Source of the DNA: Desulforamulus ferrireducens
Lineage (GTDB): Bacteria > Bacillota > Desulfotomaculia > Desulfotomaculales > Desulfotomaculaceae
NCBI RefSeq assembly: GCF_002005145.1
Contig: NZ_CP019698.1
Location: 2,232,001 to 2,296,000, forward strand
Length of the DNA stretch: 64,000 nucleotides
Reading direction: 5' to 3'
Shown here piece after piece: positions 20,264-57,411 of this stretch (position 1 is the stretch's first letter; each line of letters starts with the position of its first letter). A program made the translations under genes and the position numbers. The notes below the pieces were generated by a model that was not told where the DNA came from, did not search any database, and saw nothing but the letters and a program-made list of their open reading frames with translations.

Positions 20264-22171
20264 CTAGACCAGCACCCGGTTATCTCCCACCCTGCGGGTA
20301 ACCCTTTCACGGTCAAGGGTTTCCAACAGAGGTAAGATGTATTTCCGAGAAGTGTTCAATATATCCCTGGTTTGAGCTACTGAAATTTCTTTATTTTGTT
20401 TAAGATACTCAATAATCATTTCCTTGGCTTGCAGGTAAAGCTCAGCTGTAAAATATAATTGTTCGTCCGCTAATTTTACCAATTTTCCTGTGCGCATAAG
20501 ATATTGTAAATACTCCTGGGCTTCGGTGTCTTTTAATCTATGCTGCTTAACAATCTCCTGCCAGGAAGGAGGCTGATATTTACCCTGTTGAACACTGGCC
20601 AGCAGGGAATCTGCAATTTTTCGGTAATTGCCGGAGAGTTCCTGGTTAAAATCCGGATGAGCTAAGGTTTTCTCATGAACCCGCAAGAAACCATCGATTG
20701 ACATAGAGTTAAGTAAAAATTGAAAGTCCTTGCCGCTAACAAAGGGTAGCTTGCGAGAACGCATTTCTTCCTTGGGCAATCCTTCCCGCAAGGGATATTC
20801 TAAATGATATTTTTTTAACAATTCTTGCATATCCTTGGCCCAACCCTCATAGACCGGCCAGGCAACAAAGAGATCTTTCTTTTCCCCAACAATCCTTTTC
20901 ACTTGCTGGTTTGCCACCAGATTTGACAAAGCCGTATGTACATCACCGCTGACCAAACCGGTGGCTGTGACTATCTCCTCTTCCTGGAATAAACCCTGTT
21001 TACCTGCCAGAAACTGCTCAATTACTTCTTCCGGTGTACCCATTTCTTTAGTGGCCAGGCCTTCCAGTACTTCCGGACGATAGCGTTTGTGTTTAGGAGC
21101 GTTGGCATCAATAACCACTCCTCCCCCAATTGTCCGCATGGGGGAATAGGAGCGGATGACAAAGCGATCTCCTTTGCCAGCCACAGCCTGTTCTTCCAGT
21201 TCCAGCTGTGCGTAGCTTTCCACTCCGGGTTCCAACTTCTCCCGGTCCAGCAAGCGAACACGACCTAAAATTTCATCCGTACCCAAGTAAAGCCTTACCC
21301 GGGCCCTATTTCTTAAAGGTTTGGCAGCACTTTCCAGCAGTAACAGACGTACATCCATGCGGTGTGAAGGATCAACACTGTTGGGAGTTACCAAGACATT
21401 CCCTCGATGGATCTCTTCCACCTCCACACCTGTTAGGTTTACTGCTGTTCTTTGTCCGGCTCTGGCCTGCTCCACCTTCTGACCGTGTACTTGCAAGGAA
21501 CGAACCCGGGAAATTAGTCTCTGGGGCATAATTTCCACTGTATCTCCAATGGAAATACGGCCGGAATGTAAAGTGCCGGTTACTACTGTGCCAAAACCAG
21601 TAACCGAAAACACCCGATCTATGGGTAAACGCAGCTTACCAATACTTACCCTTTCCTCGGTGTCCTCCACGAACTGATCGATGGTCTTGAGTAACTCCTC
21701 AATGCCTTGTTTAGTAATGGATGAGACCGGAATAATGGGTGCTTCTTTAAGAATGGTGCCCTGGAGATAATCCCTGACTTCCTCAGTTACTAACCCTAAC
21801 CAGTCTTCATCCACTAAATCGACCTTGGTTAACACCACTATCCCTTTTTTTACCTGTAATAATTGAATGATATCCACGTGTTCCCGGGTCTGGGGCATAA
21901 CCCCTTCATCGGCAGCAATGACCAGCATGACTAAATCTATGCCGCCCACTCCCGCCAACATATTTTTAATAAACCTTTCATGGCCCGGTACATCAACAAT
22001 ACCCGCTTGTTTGCCACTGGGTAACTTCAACTGGGCAAATCCCAGCTCAATGGAGATACCCCTCTCCTTTTCTTCCTTTAAACGATCGGTATCCGTACCA
22101 GTTAAGGTTTTAATTAGCAAGGTCTTGCCATGGTCCACATGGCCGGCGGTGCCAATGATGATATGCTTCAT
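20264..22171 (-). CDS. selB: selenocysteine-specific elongation factor SelB
   Basis: A 635-residue SelB. The GTPase domain has G1 GHVDHGKT, G3 DVPGHERF and G4 TKVD, followed by two beta-barrel domains and a C-terminal winged-helix region of about 250 residues that binds the bacterial SECIS hairpin. It delivers Sec-tRNA to in-frame UGA codons. Its ATG overlaps the selA stop codon (ATGA), so the two are coupled. A likely client, the ArsC-like gene with a TGA codon, lies 34 kb away in this window. No selC or selD is seen here. Confidence 0.96.
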
Positions 22172-23595
22172 CTTCCGGTGCCCTCCCTGGAATTGATTAT
22201 ACGAGACATCACATCGGCCAAAGGTTCAATCTCCTCCGGTTGGACTGTTCGTAAATCCACCTGGTATTTGTTATCCTGCACTCTGCCAACCACTGCCGGC
22301 TCGGCTAATCTTAACCTGACGGACAGTTCTTCCACCGATAAATGTTCTGCCACACAGGTAACTAAATAGGTGGGTAATTCAGCGGTGGGCATAGAACCGC
22401 CACCTACCTGGGAAGTACCCGGAGCTAAGTCAATTTGAGCAGGGGAAGTTATCTTTTCTTTAAGCAGGGCAAGTAGTTTCTCTGCTCTGTCTTTTACAGC
22501 AGCGGGAGCTTCTGTGAGCATTCTTATGGTAGGAATATTTTTCAGTACATTGTCCTGATCAATATATTCTCTCAGGGTGGCTTCCAAAGCAGCCACCGTG
22601 AACTTATTAATACGTATGGCTCTGGTGAGGGGATTCTTCTTCATTTGGTCGATCCACTTACGTTTGCCTACAATAATACCCGCCTGGGGTCCACCCAACA
22701 GTTTGTCCCCGGAAAAGGTAACTACATCTGCCCCGGCTGCCACAACTTCCTGCACACTGGGTTCCTGGGGTAAACCATAGGGAGCCAGATCCACCAGGAA
22801 GCCACTACCAAGATCCGACATTACCGGTATTTGTCGTTCTGCCCCAATTTGCACCAATTCTTCAACGGTTGTTTCCCGGGTAAAACCAACAATGCGGTAA
22901 TTACTGGTATGAACATGCAGTAAAAGTGCTGTTTCTGCGGTGATGGCCTTTTGATAATCCTGCGGGTGGGTTTTATTGGTGGCTCCCACCTCCACTAACA
23001 GAGCACCGCTCTGCGCCATCACCTCAGGAATTCTAAAGGAACCGCCGATTTCCACTAACTGTCCCCGGGATACGATAACCTCTTTCCCCTTTGCCATAGT
23101 TCCTAAGGCTAACAATACAGCAGCAGCATTATTATTAACCACCAGGGCAGCTTCGGCGCCGGTAAGGCGGGTGATTAATTCTTCCACAGGTTCGTAACGG
23201 GAGCCTCGTTTACCTGAGTTGAGGTTGATCTCCAAATTACAATAGGAGGAGGCCACTGCCTCCACTGCCTCCTTGGCAGAACAAGACAGGAGGGCCCGTC
23301 CTAAATTGGTATGCAGCACCACACCGGTTGCATTGATTACCCGGCGTAAGTTAGGCTTAATTTCTTCTTTACTTAGTTCAATAGCTTTTTGAACTACCAG
23401 TTGTTCAAGATCTTCCGGGCCACCTGTGTAACTACCGGCTAAAATCTCCTGTCTCTTGACCTCGATGGCCCTGCGTACCGCGTCGACAATTACCGTTCTG
23501 GGTATCTTTGGCATCAACTCAAGAATGCTCGGGTTTTTCAGCAAATCGTCAACCTTTGGTAAGGATCTGAGCAATGATTTATTTAATGGTTCCAT
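22168..23595 (-). CDS. selA: L-seryl-tRNA(Sec) selenium transferase
   Basis: A 475-residue PLP enzyme that converts Ser-tRNA(Sec) to Sec-tRNA(Sec) using selenophosphate. An N-terminal tRNA-binding helical domain is followed by an aminotransferase-like core; the PLP lysine is in [13 protein letters not shown] (Lys 298), and [15 protein letters not shown] is the family signature. Length is typical. It is the first gene of selA-selB. The ATG has a GGAGG site. Confidence 0.96.
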
Positions 23596-39967: not shown

Positions 39968-41590
39968 TTAGCGGTTGGCAGGAAAAGCCATTTGTTCTAA
40001 AAAAACAGTTTGAAAATGGGCGTTAGTTGCCAATTCGTAATGGCTAAACTTTTGACTAAGCTGCTCCGCCCTCTGCCTGGCGGGATAGGAAAGCAGCAGC
40101 AGCACAGCTCCCACCCCGGCTGCATTACCTACCTGTTGCAGTTTTGTTGTGTTCGCTGTTTTCCCCAGCAAACCAATTCTCAGGGCGTTGTTTGGGTTAA
40201 GATACGTGCCAAAACCACCTGCTAAGAGAATCTGTGACAAAGCTTGCTTGCTTAATCCCGCTTCCTTTAATAATAGCTTGATACCGGCAGCCACCGCTGC
40301 TTTGGCCAGTTGGACTGCCCGAATATCCCTTTGGCTAATATAAACCTGCTCAGTCAAGAAAAAGCTTATGTTATCTCCCACCTGCTGCAGACGTTGTTTG
40401 ACTTTAAAACTAACCACCGGTGGCACCTGCGAAGGGGGAAGCAGTTGACCTGCCCTATCAATTATTCCTAAGCGCAGCATTTCAGCTAAGGCATCCACCA
40501 GTCCCGAACCACAAATCCCGGTAGCCCGTCCGCCACCTATAACCTCGGTATGAACATCAAAATCAATGGTAACTTTACTGATAGCTCCCGCCGCTGCAAC
40601 CATACCACATTCTATACCAGCCCCCTCCAAAGCGGGCCCGGCAGGTACCGAGGCAGCCAGCAGTCTTTCTCCGGCCTGCAGCAGTATTTCTCCGTTGGTA
40701 CCAATATCCACTAACAAAGCCGTCCCCTGACGGCCAAAATCTTGGGCCAAAGCCGCTGCCAGAGCGTCAGAACCCACGAAGCTGCCAATAATGGGAGGTA
40801 CATAGCAGACAGCCCGGGGCAACGCCGTTAGTCCCAATTCAACAGCTGACCGATAACAGGAACCCCTTTGCCGGGGCTTAAAGGGAGCAACCGCCAAGCC
40901 TTCTATGGGTAGATCTAAGAAAAAATGCATCATGGCAGTATTGCCAACCAAAACCATCTCTCTGACTAAGCCTGTCCTGGTCTCTGCCGCACGGCAGCAA
41001 CTCTCAGCTAAATGGTTAATATCGTCCAACAGCCTTTGCCTGAGCTGCCGGTATTTATCTGCCCCTTGCAGGGCATAACCCAGCCGGGAAATAACATCCG
41101 CGCCAAATATTTGTTGGCCGTTCACCAGTGAATGCACTGCCAACAAACGACCATCCAGTAAATTATAGAGGTAAGCCACCAGGGTAGTTGTGCCCACATC
41201 CACTGCCAGCCCCAGAACATCCTCCCCTGGCTGTTCCTGGGGCAACAAAGGAAGGTTCCGCCTGTGTTTCAGCTCACCCCTGACATCGTATGTAATGGCC
41301 GGTTCCAGGGCTACCTCTGTTCCCTCTCCTGTGGCCAAAATGATGGGTGGCTGTGTATTAAGCTCCACCAGCAGCTCCTCTACCACCACTGTTCTGCAGG
41401 CTAAGAGCCAGTTCTCCTTTTGTTGGCTGTATACCTTAACCAAACACCTGCCACAGCCTTTGTTGCCGCCACAGGGAGCGGTTAGGTTCACACCTGCCAG
41501 CCTGGCAGCTGCCAAAATGGTGGTACCCACCGGCACCTCGATACACTGCCCCCCCGGGTGGAAGGACACTTTTACCCTCTTCTCATGCAA
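39968..41590 (-). CDS. RACo-like corrinoid protein reactivase
   Basis: A 540-residue protein with an N-terminal [2Fe-2S] ferredoxin domain (Cys 40, 46, 49 in CGGNKGCGRC and Cys 65) and an ASKHA-type ATPase region (LAVDVGTTTLVAYL, VDIGTNGEI, GSGLVDALAEM) as in reductive activators of corrinoid proteins. It would use ATP to re-reduce inactive Co(II) cobalamin to Co(I). It directly follows the metH catalytic gene, so methionine synthase is the likely client. The start is TTG at 41590. Confidence 0.88.
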   Translation of the reverse strand: MHEKRVKVSFHPGGQCIEVPVGTTILAAARLAGVNLTAPCGGNKGCGRCLVKVYSQQKENWLLACRTVVVEELLVELNTQPPIILATGEGTEVALEPAITYDVRGELKHRRNLPLLPQEQPGEDVLGLAVDVGTTTLVAYLYNLLDGRLLAVHSLVNGQQIFGADVISRLGYALQGADKYRQLRQRLLDDINHLAESCCRAAETRTGLVREMVLVGNTAMMHFFLDLPIEGLAVAPFKPRQRGSCYRSAVELGLTALPRAVCYVPPIIGSFVGSDALAAALAQDFGRQGTALLVDIGTNGEILLQAGERLLAASVPAGPALEGAGIECGMVAAAGAISKVTIDFDVHTEVIGGGRATGICGSGLVDALAEMLRLGIIDRAGQLLPPSQVPPVVSFKVKQRLQQVGDNISFFLTEQVYISQRDIRAVQLAKAAVAAGIKLLLKEAGLSKQALSQILLAGGFGTYLNPNNALRIGLLGKTANTTKLQQVGNAAGVGAVLLLLSYPARQRAEQLSQKFSHYELATNAHFQTVFLEQMAFPANR

Positions 41591-41609
41591 CCTGCATCAG
41601 CTCCGTAGT

Positions 41610-44054
41610 CTAGCTTACCAGCTTTTTAGCCAAAGCCACAGCCTCTACCGCATCTACGGCATAACCATCGGCACCTATTTCCCGGGCATACTGTTCAGTT
41701 ACCGCGGCGCCCCCCACCATAACCTTGCAGGTTAAGCCAGCTTCCTTAACCTTAGCTATGCAATCGGGCATATGAACCATGGTGGTAGTCATCAAAGCAC
41801 TTAAGGCTATAATATCCGCCCGGTGCTCCACCGCAGTTTGCAGAATAACCTGGTTGTCAACATTTTTACCTAAGTCAATAACTTCGAAGCCATGGTTTGC
41901 CAGCATTACCCCGAGAATGTTCTTGCCAATATCATGAATATCACCCTTGACCGTGGCTAATACCACTGTCCCTAGCTTCCTGGCCGTCCCTTGGGCCAAC
42001 TCCGGCTTTAGCCGTTCAAAGCTCTTAGTCATGGTTTCCCCGGCCATCATTAACTGTGGCAGGAAATAGATGCCCGCCCCGTACCTGCGTCCTACCTCTT
42101 CAATACCGGGAATCAAGGCTTTATCCAGCAGTTCCATGGGACTTAACCCACTGTCCAGGGCTTTATTAATATAATCCACCACATTATCCTTATCCCCGGA
42201 AAGCACGGCCTGATAAAGAACTTCCAAAGGTGTGTTAGCCTTTACTTCCTGCACCTGCGGGGTATAGCCACCTCCCTGGTTGGCCTGTTCTTGGGCAATA
42301 TAGTGCTCGGCCCGTACATCCCGGCCGGTGAGTACCGCGCCTGCCCGTAAGGTTTCCATCATCCGCTGATCCTGTGGGTTTAAAATAGCGGCATCCAGTC
42401 CTGCTTCCAAGGCCATGGCCAAGAAGGCTGTATTAATCAGACCTCGGTTAGGCAGTCCGAAGGAAACATTGCTTACTCCTAAACTGGTGGTTAAACCCAG
42501 CTCCTGCTTAATATACCTGATGGCTTTTAAGGTCTCCGGTACCCCCTCCGGCTGAGCACTGACGGTGAGCACCAAAGTATCGATCATTAAGTCATGCTTG
42601 GGAATACCTGTTTCCTCTACCTGTTGTAGCATTTTACGAGCCACAGCCAGCCGTTCCTCTGCCGTGGGGGGGATACCTTGATCATCCAAGGTTAAGCCAA
42701 TAAGGGCTGCACCATAGCGCTTGGCCAAGGGCAAAATAGTTTTTAAGCTGTTGGCTTCACCGTTGACTGAATTAATCAGGGCCTTGCCATGATAATTTTT
42801 CAGAGCCTGCTCAATTACCAAGGGGTCGGTACTATCGATACAAAGGGGGGCATCTACCAACACTTGTACGGCATTGACCGCCCGCTCCATGGCAGCCACT
42901 TGATCAACCCCGCCCACACCCACATTGACATCCAAAATGGCTGCCCCTGCTTCCACCTGAGCCAGGGCATCCCGGCGGGTAATCTCTGTTTTACCTTCCC
43001 GAATCTCTGCCTGGAGAGCTTTTTTGCCCGTAGGGTTCAACCGTTCACCTATGGCCACGGGCAAACCCGCGGGATGAATGGCTACGGTTTTTACCCGACT
43101 GGCCACACGCAAGCCAAAGAACTTGTTTCTAGGTTTGATGGTTAGTCCCTTGACAGCCTGCCCAATGGCTTTAATATGTTCCGGCGTGGTACCACAGCAA
43201 CCTCCCAGGATAGATGCCCCATATGCCACAAATTGTTTGGCATAGTCGGCCATTAGTTCAGGGGTTTCCCGGAAAATGGTGCGCCCCTCCACCATTTCAG
43301 GCATACCGGCATTGGGAGATACCAGGATAGGCAGGTTAGTACTCTGGGTTAATTTCTGCACCACCCCCGTAAGTTGACGGGGGCCCACCGAACAATTGAC
43401 CCCGATGGCTGACACTCCCAGCCGTTCTACCACCACTGCGGCGGTTTCCGGATCGGTGCCTGTGAAGGTACGACCGGATTCATCAAAGGTAAAACTGGCC
43501 ACCACCGGCACATTCCCAGCGTCCGCTGCCGCAATTAAAGCCGCTCGCATTTCCCCAATATCCCCAAAGGTCTCAAAGAGGATTAGGTCTACTTCGGCCT
43601 CCACCATAGCCCGACACTGCTCAAAAAACAATTGATAAGCCTCATCAAAGGACATTTCACCCAAGGGTCGCAGGAATTTGCCCAGGGGTCCGATGGACCC
43701 AGCCACCAAAGCCCCATAGGGCTTTGCTGCTTCTTTTGCCAAAGTTACAGCAGCATGGTTTAACTCCTTTACCCGCTCCTGCAGACCGTAGTCGGCCAGC
43801 TTACTGCCAATGGCACCAAAGGTGTTAGTGGTAATGATATCTGCTCCCGCCTTAAGGTAGAGCTTATGTACTTCTTTAATTACCTCAGGATGACTAACGT
43901 TCCACTCTTCGGGGCACCACCCCGCAGGTAATCCCCTTTGCTGCAGCAGGGTACCCATAGCTCCATCAATCACTAAAATCTCTTCTTTAACTCTCGCCCG
44001 AAAGGACAAACATGACCCTCTCCTTCCCTGTATGGATTTACTTTTTTCACCCAC
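41610..44054 (-). CDS. metH: cobalamin-dependent methionine synthase, catalytic modules
   Basis: An 814-residue protein with three of the four MetH modules. They are a homocysteine-binding domain (zinc cysteines in GVNCS and GGCCGTTPEH), a pterin/methyl-THF domain (from PVAIGERLNPTGKKA), and the cap plus B12-binding domain with the Co-ligand motif GDIHDIGKN. The C-terminal activation domain is missing and is encoded separately by the preceding gene. It transfers methyl from methyl-THF to homocysteine. The GTG start at 44054 follows TAGGAG, nine bases after the upstream stop. It is controlled by the SAM-I riboswitch upstream. Confidence 0.92.
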   Translation of the reverse strand: MGEKSKSIQGRRGSCLSFRARVKEEILVIDGAMGTLLQQRGLPAGWCPEEWNVSHPEVIKEVHKLYLKAGADIITTNTFGAIGSKLADYGLQERVKELNHAAVTLAKEAAKPYGALVAGSIGPLGKFLRPLGEMSFDEAYQLFFEQCRAMVEAEVDLILFETFGDIGEMRAALIAAADAGNVPVVASFTFDESGRTFTGTDPETAAVVVERLGVSAIGVNCSVGPRQLTGVVQKLTQSTNLPILVSPNAGMPEMVEGRTIFRETPELMADYAKQFVAYGASILGGCCGTTPEHIKAIGQAVKGLTIKPRNKFFGLRVASRVKTVAIHPAGLPVAIGERLNPTGKKALQAEIREGKTEITRRDALAQVEAGAAILDVNVGVGGVDQVAAMERAVNAVQVLVDAPLCIDSTDPLVIEQALKNYHGKALINSVNGEANSLKTILPLAKRYGAALIGLTLDDQGIPPTAEERLAVARKMLQQVEETGIPKHDLMIDTLVLTVSAQPEGVPETLKAIRYIKQELGLTTSLGVSNVSFGLPNRGLINTAFLAMALEAGLDAAILNPQDQRMMETLRAGAVLTGRDVRAEHYIAQEQANQGGGYTPQVQEVKANTPLEVLYQAVLSGDKDNVVDYINKALDSGLSPMELLDKALIPGIEEVGRRYGAGIYFLPQLMMAGETMTKSFERLKPELAQGTARKLGTVVLATVKGDIHDIGKNILGVMLANHGFEVIDLGKNVDNQVILQTAVEHRADIIALSALMTTTMVHMPDCIAKVKEAGLTCKVMVGGAAVTEQYAREIGADGYAVDAVEAVALAKKLVS

Positions 44055-47941: not shown

Positions 47942-49255
47942 CTAGATGCCACCCAAAACAACACCCATGATGAGGATAAAGAGGGCAACCCCTGTAAAGA
48001 CATACTTAGCCAGGTAACCCCACCACTCACCCATGGGCTTGGCTGCACCCTGGTTTACCTGGGCCACGGCTCTTTTGACACCATAAACCCAGAAGAAAAC
48101 AAAGGCCGCCAGTACAGCCCCAAAGGGGACAATATAAATGGTTACTATGTCAGAGAATTTACCAAAAAAGTCCATATTAAGATCCAGGGGAATACCAATA
48201 AGAAAACCTAAGGTAGCTACAATAATGGACGCCTTCAGTCGACTCATCTTAAAACGATCCATGACAGCCTCCACAGGTACCTCCATTAAATTGATGGCCG
48301 AGGAAAGGGCTGCAAAAACAACAGCTAAGAAAAACAGTACACCAAAGAGATAACCCCCGGGCATATGACTAAAAACAGAGGGAATGGTGATAAACAGCAG
48401 CGGTGGACCTGCCTGGGGATCCTGACCGAAGGCAAAGGCGGCCGGAATGACCACAAAGGCTGCCAACAGCGAAGCAATGGTCGTCCAAAAAGCTGTATGG
48501 ATGGCAGAGGAGGGAATATCTTCCTTCTCCTTCAGATAACTGCCATAGACCAGCATGGCCGCCCCACCTAAGGAAACTGTAAAAAAGGCTTGTCCCAGGG
48601 CGTTTACCCAGGTTAAGGGGTCTTGCAGCTTGGACCAGTCCGGTACAGTTAAAAACTTAATACCCTCTGCTGCCCCCTCCAGGGTTAAGGTGCGGATCAA
48701 GAGGATTAGCAAAATAATAAACAATCCCGGCATCATGATCTTATTGGCTTTTTCAATACCACCGGCTACCCCTTTGGCGATAATGGCCAGGGTTAATAAC
48801 AGGGCCAAAGCATGCCAGAAAATACTTTCCGGTTGTCCGGCAAACCCACCAAAGTAGGGCCCCGGTTCAATCTTGGTAAAGGTATTGGTCAAAGCTAACC
48901 AAAAATACTTAATAATCCAACCACAGACAATCAAATAAAAGGTGAATACTCCTGTTACCCCCAGTACAGGGATAACCCCTAGGGCTGCCCCCAGGCCGCC
49001 GTTACCCTTTTCCTTAAAGACGCTTTCAAAGGCACTGATGGCTCCCTTTTGTTGACTTCGCCCAAAGGCAAATTCACCCATCAGCCCGGTAACTCCCAGA
49101 ACAAAGGTAAAAACTAAATAGGGCACCATAAAGGCGGCACCACCATAGGCCCCAATACGAAAGGGGAACATCCAAATGGAACCCAGCCCCATGGCGGCAC
49201 CTACCGCGGCTAAGATAAATCCCGTCTTACCAGACCAAGATTCACGTTCTGCCAT
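47942..49255 (-). CDS. sodium-dependent amino acid transporter (NSS family)
   Basis: A 437-residue membrane protein with about 11 hydrophobic segments and the NSS signature KTGFILAAVGAAMGLGSIWMFPF in the first helix (sodium and substrate site). It imports an amino acid with sodium. It follows tryptophanase by 30 bases in the same direction, so tryptophan is the likely substrate; this is inference from context. Confidence 0.9.
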   Translation of the reverse strand: MAERESWSGKTGFILAAVGAAMGLGSIWMFPFRIGAYGGAAFMVPYLVFTFVLGVTGLMGEFAFGRSQQKGAISAFESVFKEKGNGGLGAALGVIPVLGVTGVFTFYLIVCGWIIKYFWLALTNTFTKIEPGPYFGGFAGQPESIFWHALALLLTLAIIAKGVAGGIEKANKIMMPGLFIILLILLIRTLTLEGAAEGIKFLTVPDWSKLQDPLTWVNALGQAFFTVSLGGAAMLVYGSYLKEKEDIPSSAIHTAFWTTIASLLAAFVVIPAAFAFGQDPQAGPPLLFITIPSVFSHMPGGYLFGVLFFLAVVFAALSSAINLMEVPVEAVMDRFKMSRLKASIIVATLGFLIGIPLDLNMDFFGKFSDIVTIYIVPFGAVLAAFVFFWVYGVKRAVAQVNQGAAKPMGEWWGYLAKYVFTGVALFILIMGVVLGGI

Positions 49256-49285
49256 GCTGTCATCTCCAATCTCATGCCGGACTCT

Positions 49286-50674
49286 TTATTGCACCGGTTT
49301 TAGTCTGGCCAGAAAATGTCTTAACACCGGTGGTTCGTAGGTAAATTCCAACCCCTTAAGTGTTTTGGCTTGTTCCTTGGTGCTGAATAGTCCCTCGGCT
49401 ATCACATCCATATGGGTGTTGGTATAGGTTCTGCGAGGAATGGTCAGACGTAATAATTCCATGGGAGACTCCAGATTTTCTCCTGTATCCGGGTCTCTGC
49501 CCAACAGAAAAGAGCCAATCTCCACAGCCCGTACACCGGAATTAACATATAGGGCGTTAGCTAAGGACTGGGCTGGGAATTGATAATAAGGTATATGGGG
49601 CAACATTTTCTTGGCATCCACAAACACCGCATGCCCACCGGTGGGGTACTGAATGGGTATACCGCCCTCCCGTAGTTTTTCACCCAGGTAGGCCACCTGT
49701 CCGATGCGATAATCCAAATAATCATAATCCATACCTTCATAAAGGCCTCGGGTCAGGGCTTCCATATCCCGTCCGGCTAAACCACCATAGGTAATAAAAC
49801 CTTCCATGGGTACCGTCCGTGCCGCACATTTCTTATATAGCTCTTCATCATCCTTGATGGCCAGGACGCCACCAATATTAACGATAGCATCCTTTTTAGC
49901 ACTCATGGTAAAGCCCTCGGCGTAACTGAACATTTCTTTAACAATTTCCTTAATGGATTTGTGAGCGTAGCCTTCCTCCCTGTTTTTAATGAAGTAAGCA
50001 TTTTCATAAGCCCTGGCAGCATCAATAAATACTCTGATGCCATATTTTTTGGCCAATTCACTGGTCTTGCGCATATTTTCCATGGATACCGGCTGACCAC
50101 CACAGCTATTACATGTTATGGTAATAATAACCATGGCAATATTCTCTGGCCCTTTTTCCTTAATCAGAGCTTCCAGCCTGTCAAGATCAAAATTGCCTTT
50201 AAAAGGGTGATATTTCTCAGTATCAAAGGCATCTTCAATAACACAATTTATCGCACGCCCACCGGCCATTTCAACATGACCCTTGGTGGTATCAAAGTGC
50301 ATGTTACTGATAAAAATTTGACCTGGTTTTTTAATTATGCTAGGGAATAGTACCTGTTCGGCACCCCGTCCCTGGTGGGTGGGAATGGTATATTTATAGC
50401 CAAAGATATCCTCCACAGCATTCCTCAGGTTATTATAATTTCTACTGCCTGAGTAGGCTTCATCCCCCATCATTAAACCTGCCCACTGATAATCACTCAT
50501 AGCCCCGGTCCCACTGTCAGTTAACAAATCGATATAGACTTCTTCACTTTGCAAGAGAAAGAGATTGTACCCTGCCCGCTCTAAAGCTGCCTCCCTCTCT
50601 TCCCGGGATATTTTCTTAATTGGTTCTACCATTTTAATTCTAAAAGGCTCCGGAATAGGTTTTACTGGACACAT
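49286..50674 (-). CDS. tnaA: tryptophanase
   Basis: A 462-residue beta-eliminating PLP lyase. The PLP lysine lies in [14 protein letters not shown] (Lys 261). [13 protein letters not shown] and [20 protein letters not shown] match tryptophanase rather than tyrosine phenol-lyase, which has Arg-Ser-Met-Glu at the latter site. It splits tryptophan into indole, pyruvate and ammonia. The ATG follows AGGAGG. It is transcribed with an NSS transporter and lies divergent from a tyrosine phenol-lyase gene. No tna-like leader peptide was seen. Confidence 0.93.
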
Positions 50675-50753
50675 TGGAAAAACCTCCTATTTTTACTTTG
50701 CAGTTATCATCTCCATCATTGGATTAAATATACACACCTGGATTTTTAGATAT

Positions 50754-50789
50754 AAAAAAGTGTCGCAAGCCTAGCTCACGACACTTTTT
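50754..50789 (-). terminator. bidirectional-type terminator upstream of tnaA
   Basis: AAAAAGTGTCG and CGACACTTTTT pair perfectly, with additional G-C pairs around a small loop; a T-run follows on the minus strand. It ends the small gene 50806-50961. Confidence 0.75.
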
Positions 50790-50805
50790 AATCTTCTCTC
50801 AGTTT

Positions 50806-50961
50806 TTAAGGTATAACATTGCCATCAATTTCAAAGGATAAGGCACTGGCATCGGTTTTTACCTTACTATAGGAAGCTTCAGATTGATTGGTAAAAGCAT
50901 CATTTAGGGTAGGGTTGGAGGCTTTGTGATTTTCTGACGCGGTTTTAGTTGTTTTTGGCAT
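50806..50961 (-). CDS. small protein, 51 aa
   Basis: Read by hand: ATG at 50961 behind GGGGG, 51 codons, TAA at 50806. Hydrophilic and Ser/Thr/Asn-rich (MPKTTKTASENHKAS), with a C-terminal SFEIDGNVIP. It lies alone between the divergent tnaA and tpl genes and has its own terminator. Unrecognised; a spore-associated small protein would fit the composition, but this is a guess. Confidence 0.5.
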   Translation of the reverse strand: MPKTTKTASENHKASNPTLNDAFTNQSEASYSKVKTDASALSFEIDGNVIP

Positions 50962-51017
50962 TGGCTTACCCCCTATTTTCAATAGATTTCATAAGTAATT
51001 ATCCGATGTTGCCTCTC

Positions 51018-51038
51018 AAAAAATACCTGGTATTTTTT
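51018..51038. promoter_or_regulatory. 21-bp perfect palindrome upstream of tpl
   Basis: AAAAAATACC-T-GGTATTTTTT, 130 bases before the tpl start. The one-base centre makes it a poor RNA hairpin, so a dimeric regulator operator is more likely. Confidence 0.5.
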
Positions 51039-51165
51039 GCTTGGTAAAGTTTCCAGCTTTTTTTGGATAAAAAACAACAACAGTTACAAACTATTGTCGT
51101 CAGCTTCAAAATATTTCGCCAATATGTTTGAAGGCGGTTAACAAAACAATGAAGGAGGTAGATAA

Positions 51166-52545
<1,380 letters not shown>

Positions 52546-52558
52546 GTATTTTCTAGCA

Positions 52559-52591
52559 CTGAGGGCCGGGGAAAACCCTTCGGCCCTTCAG
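52559..52591 (+). promoter_or_regulatory. intercistronic hairpin between tpl and permease
   Basis: CTGA-GGGCCG pairs with CGGCCC-TTCAG over a 12-base loop. No T-run follows, so transcription probably continues into the permease. Confidence 0.5.
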
Positions 52592-52620
52592 GTAGTATTA
52601 TAAATTAAAGGAGTACGCCT

Positions 52621-54021
52621 ATGAGTGTCTTTCGAACTAAAGATGTAGAATTGATGATTAAGGAGTCTAAAAGGCATGGCTTAATCAAGTCTTTAGGCGC
52701 CCTTGACATTACTCTAATCGGTGTAGGTGTTATCATTGGTACCGGTATTTTTGTCCTCACCGGCGTAGCTGCCGCTCAATATGCCGGACCTGGCCTAATG
52801 TTATCCTTTGTTCTGGCCGGTTTAACAGTGGCCTTTGTGTCTTTGGCCTTTTCGGAACTGGCTGCCATGATTCCTATTGCCGGTAGTGCCTATACCTATG
52901 CCTATACAGCACTGGGAGAAGTGGTAGCTTTTATGGTTGGCTGGGGTCTGGTGCTGGAATATACGGTAGGTGCCAGCGCGGTGGCGGGCGGTTGGTCTGC
53001 CTATTTCACAGGTATCTTGGCATCCGGCGGCTTTCATTTACCGGAGTCATTAACCAAGGTGCCCGCTGATGGCGGTATCATTAATCTACCCGCTGTGCTC
53101 ATTGCTTTATTTCTCATGCTCTTACTTGTTCGGGGCACTAAAGAAAGTGCCAATCTTAATAAAATTCTAGTTTTTGTGAAGTTAGGCGCCATATTTATTT
53201 TCTTATTCTTGGCAGGTCCCAAAATAAATCCAGCTAACTGGAATCCCTTTCTGCCCTATGGCTGGCAGGGTGTGGCCACAGGGGCAGCGGTAATCTTCTT
53301 TGCCTACCTGGGTATTGACTCCATTGCTACCTCCGCGGAGGAAGCAAAAAATCCCAGAAAAGATATGCCCATTGGCATTCTTGCCTCACTGGCTATTTGT
53401 ACCATACTTTACATTGCAGTAACAGCAACCTTGACTGGCACCACCCCTTATCCCCAGTTAGACACTGCCGAGCCGGTAACCTATGTACTACGCAACCTTG
53501 GCTATAACCTGGGTTCTGCTCTGGTGGGAACCGGTGCCATAGCGGGCCTCACAACAGTTTTGATGGTCATGATGTACGCACAAACCCGGGCCTTTTTTGC
53601 CATGTCCCGTGACGGTCTAATTCCCCACTCTCTGTGCAAACTTCATCCTAAATATGGCTCACCCTATCTGGTGACCATTTTGGTGGGTATCGCTGTGGCA
53701 GTGATGAGTGGCTTTACACCCATTCACTTGGTGGCTGAAATGTGCAGTATCGGTACACTATTCGCCTTCTTTGCCTCCATTATTGGTGTAATGCGACTGC
53801 GTAAAAACAAACCCGATTGGGAACGTCCCTTTAAGTGCCCGGGACTTTATGTAATTGGTCCCATTGCACTGGTATTCTGTGCCTTTGTAATGGGTAACCT
53901 ACCAGCTCATACCTGGAGAAACTTTTTTGTCTGGATGACCATCGGGGCCATTGTCTATTTTGTCTATGGACGCAACCACAGTATTTTAGGTCAAAGAAAA
54001 GAACCTGAACCGGAGAAGTAA
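52621..54021 (+). CDS. APC-family amino acid permease
   Basis: A 466-residue permease with 12 hydrophobic segments and the APC/CAT signatures GVGVIIGTGIFVLTGVAA (helix 1) and the helix 6 segment FFAYLGIDSIATSAEEAKNPRKDMP (broken into conserved parts FFAYLGID and EEAKNP). It resembles Bacillus YfnA-type cationic/neutral amino acid transporters. Substrate inferred as tyrosine or another aromatic amino acid from its position 75 bases behind tpl; this is not proven by sequence. The ATG follows AAAGGAG. Confidence 0.88.
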   Translation: MSVFRTKDVELMIKESKRHGLIKSLGALDITLIGVGVIIGTGIFVLTGVAAAQYAGPGLMLSFVLAGLTVAFVSLAFSELAAMIPIAGSAYTYAYTALGEVVAFMVGWGLVLEYTVGASAVAGGWSAYFTGILASGGFHLPESLTKVPADGGIINLPAVLIALFLMLLLVRGTKESANLNKILVFVKLGAIFIFLFLAGPKINPANWNPFLPYGWQGVATGAAVIFFAYLGIDSIATSAEEAKNPRKDMPIGILASLAICTILYIAVTATLTGTTPYPQLDTAEPVTYVLRNLGYNLGSALVGTGAIAGLTTVLMVMMYAQTRAFFAMSRDGLIPHSLCKLHPKYGSPYLVTILVGIAVAVMSGFTPIHLVAEMCSIGTLFAFFASIIGVMRLRKNKPDWERPFKCPGLYVIGPIALVFCAFVMGNLPAHTWRNFFVWMTIGAIVYFVYGRNHSILGQRKEPEPEK

Positions 54022-55332: not shown

Positions 55333-55866
55333 TTAGTAGTTTTCACATAACAGTTCATAATGGGCTTGAGGATGAGCACAGGCCGGGCAGATGTGGGGTG
55401 CTTCCTTGCCTTTATGCACATAACCACAGTTGCGGCACTTCCACTTAACCTCCTCATCTCTCTTGAACACTTTACCCTCTTCAATATTCTTTAAGAGGGC
55501 CAAGAACCGTTTTTCATGTTCTTCTTCCACTTCACCAATTTCCCGGAAGACATCGGCTATTTCATCAAAGCCCTCTTCTCTGGCAACTTTTTCAAACTCC
55601 ACATACATGTTGGTATACTCATAATTTTCCCCAGCAGCTGCTTCTTTCAGATGGGTTTTAGTATCAGTGATACCATTTAAAAACTTAAATAATCTTTTGG
55701 CGTGTTCCTTTTCGTTATCAGCAGTTTCTAGAAAAATAGCGGCAATTTGCTCATAGCCTTCCCTTTTGGCTACACTAGCCCAATAGGTATATTTATTGCG
55801 CGCTTGGCTTTCACCGGAAAAAGCTTCCTTTAAGTTTTGTTCTGTTCTAGTTCCTTTTAGATTCAT
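55333..55866 (-). CDS. rbr: rubrerythrin
   Basis: A 177-residue rubrerythrin of the shorter-linker type: di-iron helices with [23 protein letters not shown] and [11 protein letters not shown], then a rubredoxin-like site [10 protein letters not shown]...CPACAHP. It removes hydrogen peroxide. The ATG at 55866 has an AAGGAGG site, so the frame starting at 55902 is not used. A Fur/PerR-like box lies 50 bases upstream. It is the second rubrerythrin of the window, clearly different from the first. Confidence 0.94.
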
Positions 55867-55915
55867 AATTAACCTCCTTGGAATATTTTTCTTTATAACC
55901 ATATAATTCGTGAAC

Positions 55916-55928
55916 GATAATCATTCTC
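55916..55928 (-). promoter_or_regulatory. Fur/PerR-like box upstream of rubrerythrin
   Basis: GATAATCATTCTC is a 6-1-6 inverted repeat with one mismatch, like the core of Fur-family operators. The distance to the start codon fits peroxide-responsive control by a PerR-type repressor. Confidence 0.45.
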
Positions 55929-55991
55929 CTTTTACTTTATAATTAATTAACCATTTATTAATAAATTTGTTAGCATTGCCTGTAACAAGAA

Positions 55992-56109
55992 GTAACCGAC
56001 CTCTGGGATCGGTTACATATGTGTTGGCCCAAATTCCTCTTGAACCTTTATTGCTTTGCACGGCACTCGGGGTATTGCTGAGCATTTCAAAGAGCATGTT
56101 ACCCCTTTT
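55992..56109. repeat. two hairpins between rubrerythrin and the ArsC-like gene
   Basis: GTAACCGA / TCGGTTAC (55992-56016) probably ends the minus-strand hemerythrin operon weakly. GGGGTA...TACCCC with TTTT on the plus strand (56069-56109) looks like a terminator for an unidentified plus-strand transcript. Confidence 0.4.
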
Positions 56110-56145
56110 AGATTGGTGAAATTAGTATACCCTTGACCAGCCAAC

Positions 56146-56514
56146 TTAGCCTATATTACCTGAAAATGCTTCTTCCCAGGCAGCCTCTTGAAAGCCCACC
56201 AACACTCTCTGACCATCCGTTAAAATAGGCCGTTTTACCAACATCCCATCCGAGGCTAAAATTTCGTACAGTTCTTCCTCAGTGGCAGTTTTTATCTTAT
56301 CCTTAATACCTAATTCCTTGTATTTTACACCGCTGGTATTAAAAAACTTTTTCAATTCCAGCCCGCTATTCTGATGCAGCGCCCTAATTTCCTCTTTGGT
56401 GGGATTTTGTTCTACAATGTGGCGGGTTTCAAAGGGAATACCCTTTTGCTTAAGCCAATCCTTGGCTTTTTTAACGGTGGTTCATCTTGGGTAGTCAAAT
56501 AAAGTCCAGGTCAT
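56146..56514 (-). CDS. selenocysteine-containing ArsC/Spx-like protein (in-frame TGA)
   Basis: A 122-residue ArsC-family thioredoxin-fold protein (YusI-like) if the TGA at 56484-56482 is read as selenocysteine. The start ATG at 56514 has an AGAGGT site; codons 1-10 are MTWTLFDYPR, codon 11 is TGA, and TTVKKAKDWLKQKG follows. Cys homologues have YPKCGTCRKAK there, so TGA replaces the first redox Cys and the second is Val. The rest (LKKFFNTSGVKYKELG; LASDGMLVKRPILTDG) is intact and in the same frame. A SECIS-like hairpin follows the TGA, and selA-selB are in the window. A routine gene finder would start at 56355 and call a fragment. Confidence 0.85.
56452..56468 (-). promoter_or_regulatory. bacterial SECIS-like hairpin
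   Basis: The perfect 7-bp stem AAGCCAA / TTGGCTT with loop GGA begins 13 nt after the in-frame TGA. The loop lies 20 nt downstream and starts with G, within the 16-37 nt range expected of bacterial SECIS elements. Confidence 0.75.
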
Positions 56515-56533
56515 TATTTAAACCTCTTTTCTA

Positions 56534-56995
56534 TTATTCCTTTAAAAACAGAGCAATCTCAAACTCGCCAATGGGCGTAATTAAAGTCAACACGAGAATT
56601 TTTTCATTGGTCAAGGCTACGGATTTATAATCCCCAAGAAGTACCTGAGGGGTGGCAATATCACAGGTATAATTGTAGCCTGCCAGGATGGTCATGGCAT
56701 TGCCTCCGATGATATTGGCAACCTCGCCAACCGCCGAGGAGACAAAGCTATCTACCTCAGACACTTCCATGCCACTCATAATCCTAACCATTTCCAAAAC
56801 CATTTCTTTGGGAAAGTTAAAGAAAACCGAGCCTTTAAAATCACCAGTGACGCCAATGATGACACCGACATCCTTGCTAGGCAGCGAATCTTCCTGTAAT
56901 CTTAACGCTCCTCTTTCGGTTTGTACATCCAGCATCATCTCAAAGACACTGTTAGTTGCTTGGTAAAAGGAGTTTACATATTCCGCTTTCATCAA
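56534..56995 (-). CDS. cheX: CheX-like chemotaxis phosphatase
   Basis: A 153-residue CheC/CheX-family protein: EYVNSFYQATNSVFEMML at the N-terminus and the phosphatase helix motif SAVGEVANIIGGNAM (E-x2-N). It dephosphorylates CheY-P. Its ATG overlaps the hemerythrin stop by four bases, and the ArsC-like gene begins 19 bases after its end, so the three form an operon. Confidence 0.85.
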   Translation of the reverse strand: MMKAEYVNSFYQATNSVFEMMLDVQTERGALRLQEDSLPSKDVGVIIGVTGDFKGSVFFNFPKEMVLEMVRIMSGMEVSEVDSFVSSAVGEVANIIGGNAMTILAGYNYTCDIATPQVLLGDYKSVALTNEKILVLTLITPIGEFEIALFLKE

Positions 56996-57411
56996 ATTTT
57001 TCCCCCTTGGCCTTCTACATATTCGCCTATTTTCTGATCGGTGGCAGCCACATGCATAATTAGCCAGGCCATAAGTTTACCGCCAAATTCACTCATTAAT
57101 TCTTCTGTAAAGCCTTCCTCTTCCAATCTTTTCACATAACCATTGACAGCTTCTTTGAATTTAGCGTGGATAATCTTGTGATTTTCTAAATCAGGATAGT
57201 TAATTTGTGCTTGATAGGCTTCCTCATCGGCAAAGTGAACCACCACATATTCTTGCATGAAAGCCATGGTCTCTTTCACTTTCTCCAATTTTGATTCCCA
57301 GACACCCTCTTGACGTATGGTTTGAATAAAATCCGATACCCTTCTAAAAAGTTCCTCATGTTGCTGGTCAATAAGAGGTACACCGATTTTATACTTCTCT
57401 TTCCACATCAT
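56992..57411 (-). CDS. bacteriohemerythrin
   Basis: A 139-residue four-helix O2-binding di-iron protein: ligands in DQQHEEL, HFADEE, the H-x-x-x-H pair in LENHKIIHAKF and the final HVAATD. It starts with the typical WKEKYKIGVPLIDQQH. It could deliver or sense oxygen for aerotaxis in an anaerobe, which matches CheX in the same operon and the chemoreceptor upstream. Confidence 0.93.
   Translation of the reverse strand: MMWKEKYKIGVPLIDQQHEELFRRVSDFIQTIRQEGVWESKLEKVKETMAFMQEYVVVHFADEEAYQAQINYPDLENHKIIHAKFKEAVNGYVKRLEEEGFTEELMSEFGGKLMAWLIMHVAATDQKIGEYVEGQGGKI

What the first reader, a model, noticed from the sequence alone, without database searches (positions are those of the whole stretch)
56146..56514. 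Hidden selenoprotein: ArsC/Spx-like protein with TGA at the redox-cysteine position
Seen: an ORF of 122 codons with one in-frame TGA at codon 11, flanked by full homology on both sides (YPR-TGA-TTVKKAK against YPKCGTCRKAK in YusI-like proteins). The start has a ribosome-binding site, and a perfect 7-bp hairpin with a GGA loop lies 13-30 nt after the TGA. Known: bacterial SECIS elements sit just downstream of the UGA, and selA-selB are in this window. Inference: Sec replaces the first catalytic Cys and the second Cys is lost, so the chemistry would resemble a one-Cys/Sec reductase. Its operon with hemerythrin and CheX is unexpected and suggests a redox or oxygen-linked chemotaxis function.
Basis: partly seen in the sequence, partly recalled or inferred. 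Interest (0 to 1): 0.88.

Follow-up and report, generated by a model that had tools for sequence, protein, structure and literature searches.

The report
Cysteine-free selenoprotein of ArsC/Spx fold
An apparently broken gene in an anaerobic, Desulfotomaculum-like bacterium looks like an intact gene whose 'stop' codon inserts selenocysteine at the active site of a small redox protein with no cysteine at all, a variant that the published selenoprotein lists read here do not name.

Summary
The minus-strand frame 56514-56146 has one in-frame TGA at codon 11, where ArsC/Spx/YusI-like relatives carry the first Cys of CxxC. Of 147 deduplicated relatives, 42 have TGA there, 104 Cys, one is masked. The genome has selA, selB, selC and selD; its SelD and two FdhA also carry in-frame TGA. 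A hairpin with a GGA loop 20 nt after the UGA fits the bacterial SECIS model and is kept by codon choice far more in Sec than in Cys genes. The frame is under purifying selection. It is very probably a selenoprotein gene.

The main addition: the gene belongs to a clade (19 rows, SH-aLRT 97, quick tree) that also lost the second Cys. All 20 intact second-Cys-less Sec proteins found lack Cys entirely. One selenol is the only redox group, implying an external resolving thiol. ArsC-like UxxC and UxxS selenoproteins are known; this TIGR01617-type UxxV form is not in Table 1 of PMC13188914. Hemerythrin/CheX neighbours occur in 3 of 23 neighbourhoods, so chemotaxis is weakly supported.

The parts
56146..56514 (-). 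Sec-containing ArsC/Spx-like (TIGR01617-type) protein, 122 aa, motif YPR-U-TTV, no Cys
56482..56484 (-). in-frame TGA, codon 11, read as selenocysteine
   Evidence: same codon in 42 of 147 deduplicated relatives, Cys in 104, one masked
56452..56468 (-). putative bacterial SECIS hairpin AAGCCAA-GGA-UUGGCUU (7 bp, GGA loop, 20 nt between UGA and loop)
   Evidence: model criteria
56534..56995 (-). CheX-like gene directly upstream, likely co-transcribed (inferred from the 19-nt gap)
   Evidence: neighbour in 3 of 23 neighbourhoods
56992..57411 (-). bacteriohemerythrin, first gene of the likely operon
55992..56016 (-). terminator-like hairpin after the Sec gene (weak T tail)
   Evidence: the region's count (2) is no higher than in shuffles (mean 2.6)
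55333..55902 (-). rubrerythrin; a gene of the same cluster is the downstream neighbour in the 7 genus members examined
   Evidence: this gene; the others, by BLAST clustering only
20264..22171 (-). selB
   Evidence: 377 bits, cut-off 242
22168..23595 (-). selA
   Evidence: 624 bits, cut-off 268

Best explanation
The gene encodes a real selenoprotein. UGA at codon 11 is decoded as selenocysteine by SelB/tRNA-Sec with the help of the hairpin just downstream (inferred from sequence; not shown by experiment). The protein has the ArsC/Spx/YusI thioredoxin-like fold, with Sec where the nucleophilic Cys sits, at the N-terminus of helix 1. Its lineage lost the second Cys and every other Cys, so the enzyme has a single selenol. 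Most likely it works as a one-Sec reductase: the selenolate attacks an oxidised substrate (a disulfide or mixed disulfide, a peroxide, or an oxyanion), and the Se-bound intermediate is released by an outside thiol such as thioredoxin, glutaredoxin or a small thiol, or through a diselenide dimer. Substrate and partner are unknown; a protective role against oxidants in anaerobes is suggested only by neighbours.
For: TGA aligned with Cys: 42 of 147 deduplicated relatives TGA, 104 Cys, one N-masked. Sister pair within one genus: G072 TGA, G056 Cys. Sec machinery: selA and selB, selC 68.7 bits, selD itself with TGA, two FdhA over cut-off with U-H. selB over cut-off in 40 of 41 genomes with a TGA copy against 11 of 29 others (28 with a Cys copy, G185 masked; a part of the Cys-type genomes found) (Fisher p 2e-8, relatedness not corrected). 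Hairpin of at least 6 bp with G loop and 16-37 nt spacing: 18 of 18 UxxV, 15 of 20 UxxC, 2 of 3 UxxA, 1 of 1 UxxS, 11 of 103 CxxC, 0 of 1 CxxV. Ala17 codon GCC in 18 of 18 UxxV against 11 of 102 CxxC genes with Ala there. Median dN/dS 0.11 over the 32 of 91 pairs with finite dS. Cys-free: 20 of 20 intact second-Cys-less Sec proteins. Predicted structure pLDDT 92 (Cys in place of Sec); Z 20.8 to 3gkx over 117 residues.
Against: No experiment. The hairpin is conserved rather than covarying: 2 of 168 cells change on both sides, and pairing exceeds the shuffles only slightly, 95.2 against 94.2% (24 of the 42 Sec sequences, chosen for having the hairpin in one register). Rfam has no match. The published SECIS limits with a 4-bp stem discriminate poorly: 15 of 18 UxxV and 20 of 20 UxxC pass, but so do 43 of 103 CxxC genes. 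Whole-window energy beats synonymous shuffles in only 5 of 18 UxxV genes, and in 14 of 103 CxxC genes. One TGA-bearing genome, G070 (84% complete), shows no selB over cut-off. The gene is absent or truncated in 3 of 9 genus members, so it is dispensable. The mechanism is inferred from which residues are present.
Confidence: 0.7

Rival explanations
1. Pseudogene or sequencing error: the TGA is a nonsense mutation.
For: Decayed copies exist in G007, G109 and G099; two genus members have no match.
Against: Same TGA in many genomes with an otherwise open frame, strong purifying selection after the TGA, and a hairpin kept by codon choice.
Confidence: 0.02
2. The UGA is read as another residue (Trp, Cys or Gly), by a changed code or suppressor tRNA.
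For: None found; not searched for by a dedicated test.
Against: TGA ends 2 of 34 window frames of 250 aa or more; homologues have Cys there; full Sec machinery; TGA copies track selB.
Confidence: 0.01
3. A true arsenate reductase with Sec in place of Cys12 (one-Sec ArsC chemistry, as the marine UxxS arsenate reductases are presumed to work).
For: Same fold as E. coli ArsC (1i9d, Z 14.3). One nucleophile and no second Cys, as in ArsC CxxS. The arsenite exporter family Acr3 is over cut-off in 11 of 15 UxxV genomes searched.
Against: TIGR00014 only 45 bits against a cut-off of 106. The residue at ArsC Arg60 is Asn59, and Arg107 has no counterpart; only Arg94 is kept (one ArsC sequence; roles recalled). 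No arsenic gene among the 30 window proteins scanned with NCBIfam; the Acr3 copies over cut-off in G000 lie elsewhere, the nearer one about 45 kb away.
Confidence: 0.15
4. A Spx-like regulator that binds RNA polymerase, with the single Sec as a redox switch.
For: NCBIfam names the subfamily TIGR01617 'Spx/MgsR family RNA polymerase-binding'; Z 17.6 to Spx.
Against: Spx model far below cut-off: 60 against 123 bits. The Spx switch needs CxxC (recalled); the position of Spx Gly52 (role recalled) is Glu53.
Confidence: 0.08
5. A selenium-based peroxidase or sensor working with the di-iron proteins nearby in oxygen defence.
For: Rubrerythrin-cluster gene downstream in the 7 genus members examined, hemerythrin upstream in 3 of 23 neighbourhoods, flavodiiron protein downstream in G093 and, by clustering, G101.
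Against: Neighbours vary outside the genus; a terminator-like hairpin separates rubrerythrin; such genes are common in anaerobes (general knowledge).
Confidence: 0.15

Closest known systems
Arsenate reductase-like selenoprotein NF041106 (COG1393, UxxC; PMC13188914 Table 1, PMC9312934 passages)
   Same: ArsC superfamily, Sec at the first Cys position
   Different: keeps the second Cys; our protein scores 28.6 bits against a cut-off of 85
Marine Sec arsenate reductase (TIGR00014, UxxS; PMC1088965, passages seen)
   Same: ArsC superfamily, Sec without a second Cys in the motif
   Different: different subfamily; TIGR00014 cut-off not met by our protein
YusI-like 'arsenate reductase family protein' (CxxC; PDB 3gkx, 2m46, 3fz4; the name YusI is recalled)
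   Same: closest solved structures, 40-49% identity in the structure alignment, Z 17-21
   Different: two active-site Cys, no Sec
Clostridium oremlandii Sec-MsrA, 1-Cys type (PMC4479559, abstract seen)
   Same: single catalytic Sec; intermolecular dimer resolved by glutaredoxin
   Different: methionine sulfoxide reductase A, a different family with a known substrate
UXX-star glutaredoxin-like selenoproteins (NF041114, NF041211, NF041212)
   Same: Sec in a small glutaredoxin-like protein
   Different: other families; NF041212 29 bits against a cut-off of 66, NF041211 21 against 100

Membership tests
bacterial selenoprotein | in-frame UGA aligned with Cys in homologues | tested here: met
bacterial selenoprotein | genome encodes selA, selB, selC, selD | tested here: met
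bacterial selenoprotein | bSECIS: 3-9 nt loop, 4-16 bp stem, G in first two loop positions, 16-37 nt from UGA, MFE -7.5 or lower | tested here: met
   7 bp, GGA, 20 nt, -9.8 kcal/mol for 45 nt; the 17-nt hairpin alone is -6.3. Criteria in PMC13188914; 43 of 103 CxxC genes also pass, so it is a weak test
bacterial selenoprotein | Sec present in the protein | not testable with these tools
   needs 75Se labelling or mass spectrometry
NCBIfam TIGR01617 (ArsC-related, Spx/MgsR subfamily) | score over curated cut-off | tested here: met
   104.2 against 75.05 bits
arsenate reductase (glutaredoxin), TIGR00014 | score over curated cut-off | tested here: not met
   45.1 against 106.05 bits
arsenate reductase (glutaredoxin), TIGR00014 | the three active-site Arg of E. 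coli ArsC (60, 94, 107; roles recalled) | tested here: not met
   only Arg94 kept, as Arg95; Asn59 at Arg60 (one ArsC sequence)
Spx regulator | score over cut-off NF002459 and CxxC switch | tested here: not met
   60.4 against 123 bits; UxxV
ArsC family (seleno)protein NF041106 | score over cut-off | tested here: not met
   28.6 against 85 bits; 7 other Sec relatives scanned 22-40 bits

The most novel reading that the evidence does not exclude
A separate, unlisted class of selenoenzyme: a cysteine-free thioredoxin-fold protein of anaerobic Bacillota that has shed all thiols and relies on one selenol, perhaps because a nearby Cys would trap the Sec as a selenenylsulfide. Its cycle would go through an external thiol or a Se-Se dimer.
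Probability: 0.35. Interest if true: 0.72.

Novelty: new variant of a known kind. Interest (0 to 1): 0.56.

Why it matters
It offers a clean natural test of whether Sec alone can do what a Cys pair does. Related proteins with CxxC, UxxC and UxxV motifs are available, so the role of the resolving thiol can be measured directly. It also shows how plain ORF calling loses such genes: the frame is missing from the six-frame list of ORFs of 80 aa or more, and no NCBIfam 20.0 selenoprotein model reached its cut-off for this protein or for the seven Sec relatives scanned, so members risk being annotated as pseudogenes or fragments.

Tried and rejected
Rfam gave no match for 55900-57000. RNAalifold and pair counting gave little covariation; support rests on codon-choice conservation instead. 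Independent-pairs test of Sec against loss of the second Cys: only 2 supported pairs, no power; the Fisher value for that link ignores ancestry and is not used as proof. Chemotaxis and arsenic contexts were considered and found weak. Literature: the listings showed no paper whose title or abstract names this protein or a Spx-like selenoprotein. Of PMC13188914, Table 1 was read in full and the rest only as passages; PMC1794560, PMC1088965 and PMC9312934 only as passages; PMC4479559 as abstract and outline. The library lacks most subscription journals, so absence is limited to it. The 2006 list for Desulfotomaculum reducens (PMC1794560, passage) has no ArsC; G007, whose size fits that species (recalled), holds only a C-terminal remnant.

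Script errors: one search read minus-strand loci on the wrong strand (redone); one search stopped on a print error (redone). Two rows were mistyped by the motif search: L038 (really UxxC; corrected, not) and L037 (N-masked, left out of the tree and).

Rows dropped: 4 duplicates of 151 before the 147; L164, L165 and L037 from the tree; L163 (remnant without the site); L122-L124 and L137, copies of loci fetched again; L159 gave no tblastn match. The named-genome scan kept the best 80 of 584. Not fetched: the TGA rows of G136, G171, G172, G174, G196, G256, G261, G390, G408, G429 and G431.

Full report
Observation. Window 56514-56146 on the minus strand encodes MTWTLFDYPR-U-TTVKKAKDWL..., 122 residues, one in-frame TGA at codon 11, ending in TAA. 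The start has AAGAGG upstream. The read-through product is an ArsC-family protein: Pfam ArsC 70.2 bits, NCBIfam TIGR01617 104.2 bits against a cut-off of 75.05. TIGR00014 (arsenate reductase), NF002459 (Spx) and NF041106 (ArsC selenoprotein) stay below their cut-offs.

Host and Sec machinery. The nearest named relatives by this protein are Desulforamulus aeronauticus and a Desulfotomaculum MAG; their loci are identical with those of G006 and G002, which are of the window's genus. selA and selB are in the window. selC lies 19 kb outside it (68.7 bits against a gathering score of 47). selD has its own in-frame TGA (SAGUAAK), and two formate dehydrogenases over cut-off have TGA at the RLUHS site. 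TGA is an ordinary stop for 2 of 34 window frames of 250 aa or more. So Sec is most likely decoded here by the normal route, not by a changed code.

Relatives. Searches of 200 close genomes, the 113 genomes held of the order, and 398 of the phylum, overlapping sets, with 80 loci from named genomes, gave 147 deduplicated sequences in which the site could be placed. Corrected for two mistyped rows, they are UxxV 18, UxxA 3, UxxS 1, UxxC 20, CxxC 103, CxxV 1, and one N-masked. In G000 and 13 other UxxV genes compared in detail, TGA is the only in-frame stop, while third codon positions average 2.9 different bases. Sisters G072 (TGA) and G056 (Cys) form a close Sec/Cys pair. The best tree needs at least 8 changes between Sec and Cys, but well supported branches force only 2, and many forks are unresolved.

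Selection. After the TGA, dN/dS among 14 genes has a median of 0.11 and a maximum of 0.23 over the 32 of 91 pairs with finite dS; the other pairs are saturated at synonymous sites. Decay does happen: G007 keeps only the last 50 or so codons, G109 has an internal deletion and G099 a changed end. Two further genus members have no match. Both decayed copies that keep the N-terminus still carry TGA at the same codon.

SECIS. In UxxV genes a 6-8 bp hairpin with a GGA, GGC, GAA or similar loop starts about 13 nt after the UGA. For the window gene the loop is 20 nt from the UGA and the 45-nt MFE is -9.8 kcal/mol, within the published bSECIS limits. Against 300 synonymous-codon versions of each gene, the hairpin is better than chance at p<0.05 in 12 of 18 UxxV, 9 of 19 UxxC, 1 of 3 UxxA and 0 of 1 UxxS genes, against 1 of 103 CxxC and 0 of 1 CxxV genes. 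The Ala17 codon is GCC in 18 of 18 UxxV genes and in 11 of 102 CxxC genes with Ala there; in UxxC genes it is GCC in 4 of 19, many of which have their hairpin in another register. A stem of 6 bp or more with a G loop and right spacing is met by 18 of 18 UxxV, 15 of 20 UxxC, 2 of 3 UxxA, 1 of 1 UxxS and 11 of 103 CxxC genes. Against this: with the published minimum of 4 bp, 43 of 103 CxxC genes pass as well, and 3 of 18 UxxV genes fail the MFE limit. Total window energy alone separates poorly (below p 0.05 in 5 of 18 UxxV and 14 of 103 CxxC genes). True covariation is slight, with compensatory changes in 2 of 24 sequences at the outermost pair (24 of the 42 Sec sequences were given).

A lone selenol. 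The second active-site Cys is Val, Ala or Ser in 22 Sec proteins. All 20 intact ones have no Cys between nine residues before the Sec and the stop, whereas 19 of the 20 UxxC proteins, those counted, have 1-3 and the 103 CxxC relatives 2-5. Nineteen of the 20 form one clade (SH-aLRT 97, quick tree of 116 columns with some long branches, so not final); the other, L158, is a long branch elsewhere. One Cys protein with Val at the second site (L112) branches just outside the group that holds this clade and 56 other rows. The predicted structure (33 sequences, pLDDT 92, Cys in place of Sec) has residue 11 just before helix 12-23 and matches 3gkx at Z 20.8, rmsd 1.2 over 117 residues, Spx at 17.6 and E. 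coli ArsC at 14.3. With no internal resolving thiol, a catalytic cycle must use an outside thiol or a Se-Se dimer; the Sec-MsrA of Clostridium oremlandii, whose dimer is resolved by glutaredoxin, is a precedent (abstract). This step is inference.

Which substrate. Canonical arsenate reduction is disfavoured: the position of ArsC Arg60 is Asn59, and Arg107 has no counterpart (roles recalled). Spx-like control of RNA polymerase is disfavoured for lack of CxxC and of the Gly52 position (roles recalled). Neighbours hint at oxidant defence: a gene of the rubrerythrin cluster is downstream in the 7 genus members examined, including G007 with its remnant; hemerythrin-CheX is upstream in 3 of 23 neighbourhoods; a flavodiiron protein is downstream in G093 and, by clustering, in G101. 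A terminator-like hairpin lies between the gene and rubrerythrin. Outside the genus no partner is shared widely (the largest such set is three genomes of one family), so chemotaxis is not supported.

Novelty. ArsC-type selenoproteins are known: UxxS (PMC1088965, passages), UxxC (NF041106; PMC13188914 Table 1; PMC9312934, passages), and 'ArsC-like' in Desulfotalea with a distant homologue in Desulfuromonas (PMC1794560, passages), whose motifs I did not see. Table 1 of PMC13188914 has one UxxV entry, TsoY (NF047643), under another family model, and no TIGR01617 entry. I therefore call this a new variant of a known kind. Whether some database already annotates members could not be checked.

Noticed in passing
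L157 (G460 contig 145): Two UxxC copies of the gene lie about 2.7 kb apart on one contig, both with TGA at the site.
   Followed up: partly
L112 (Clostridium sp. MAG SUG825): A Cys homologue with CSTV: one Cys at the active site and Val at the second position, a natural Cys counterpart of the lone-Sec form.
   Followed up: partly
G070 (L038): A TGA-bearing UxxC copy in a genome without a selB match over cut-off (84% complete): missing contig or orphan gene.
   Followed up: no
window 47942-54021: A tryptophanase-like gene (49286-50674 -) and a tyrosine phenol-lyase gene (51169-52545 +) lie divergently side by side, each with a transporter gene behind it.
   Followed up: no
window 39968-44054: A methionine-synthase-like corrinoid protein without the C-terminal part, next to an AcsV/RamA-like corrinoid activase (below those models' cut-offs).
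   Followed up: no
G000:C1:27885-28205: A distant ArsC-like paralogue (29% identity) in the same genome with a single Cys in the matched stretch (IKKCFDTKKAE) and no TGA.
   Followed up: partly
G000:C1:1046551-1047315: A third, weaker formate-dehydrogenase-like match with an in-frame TGA (131 bits, below cut-off).
   Followed up: no
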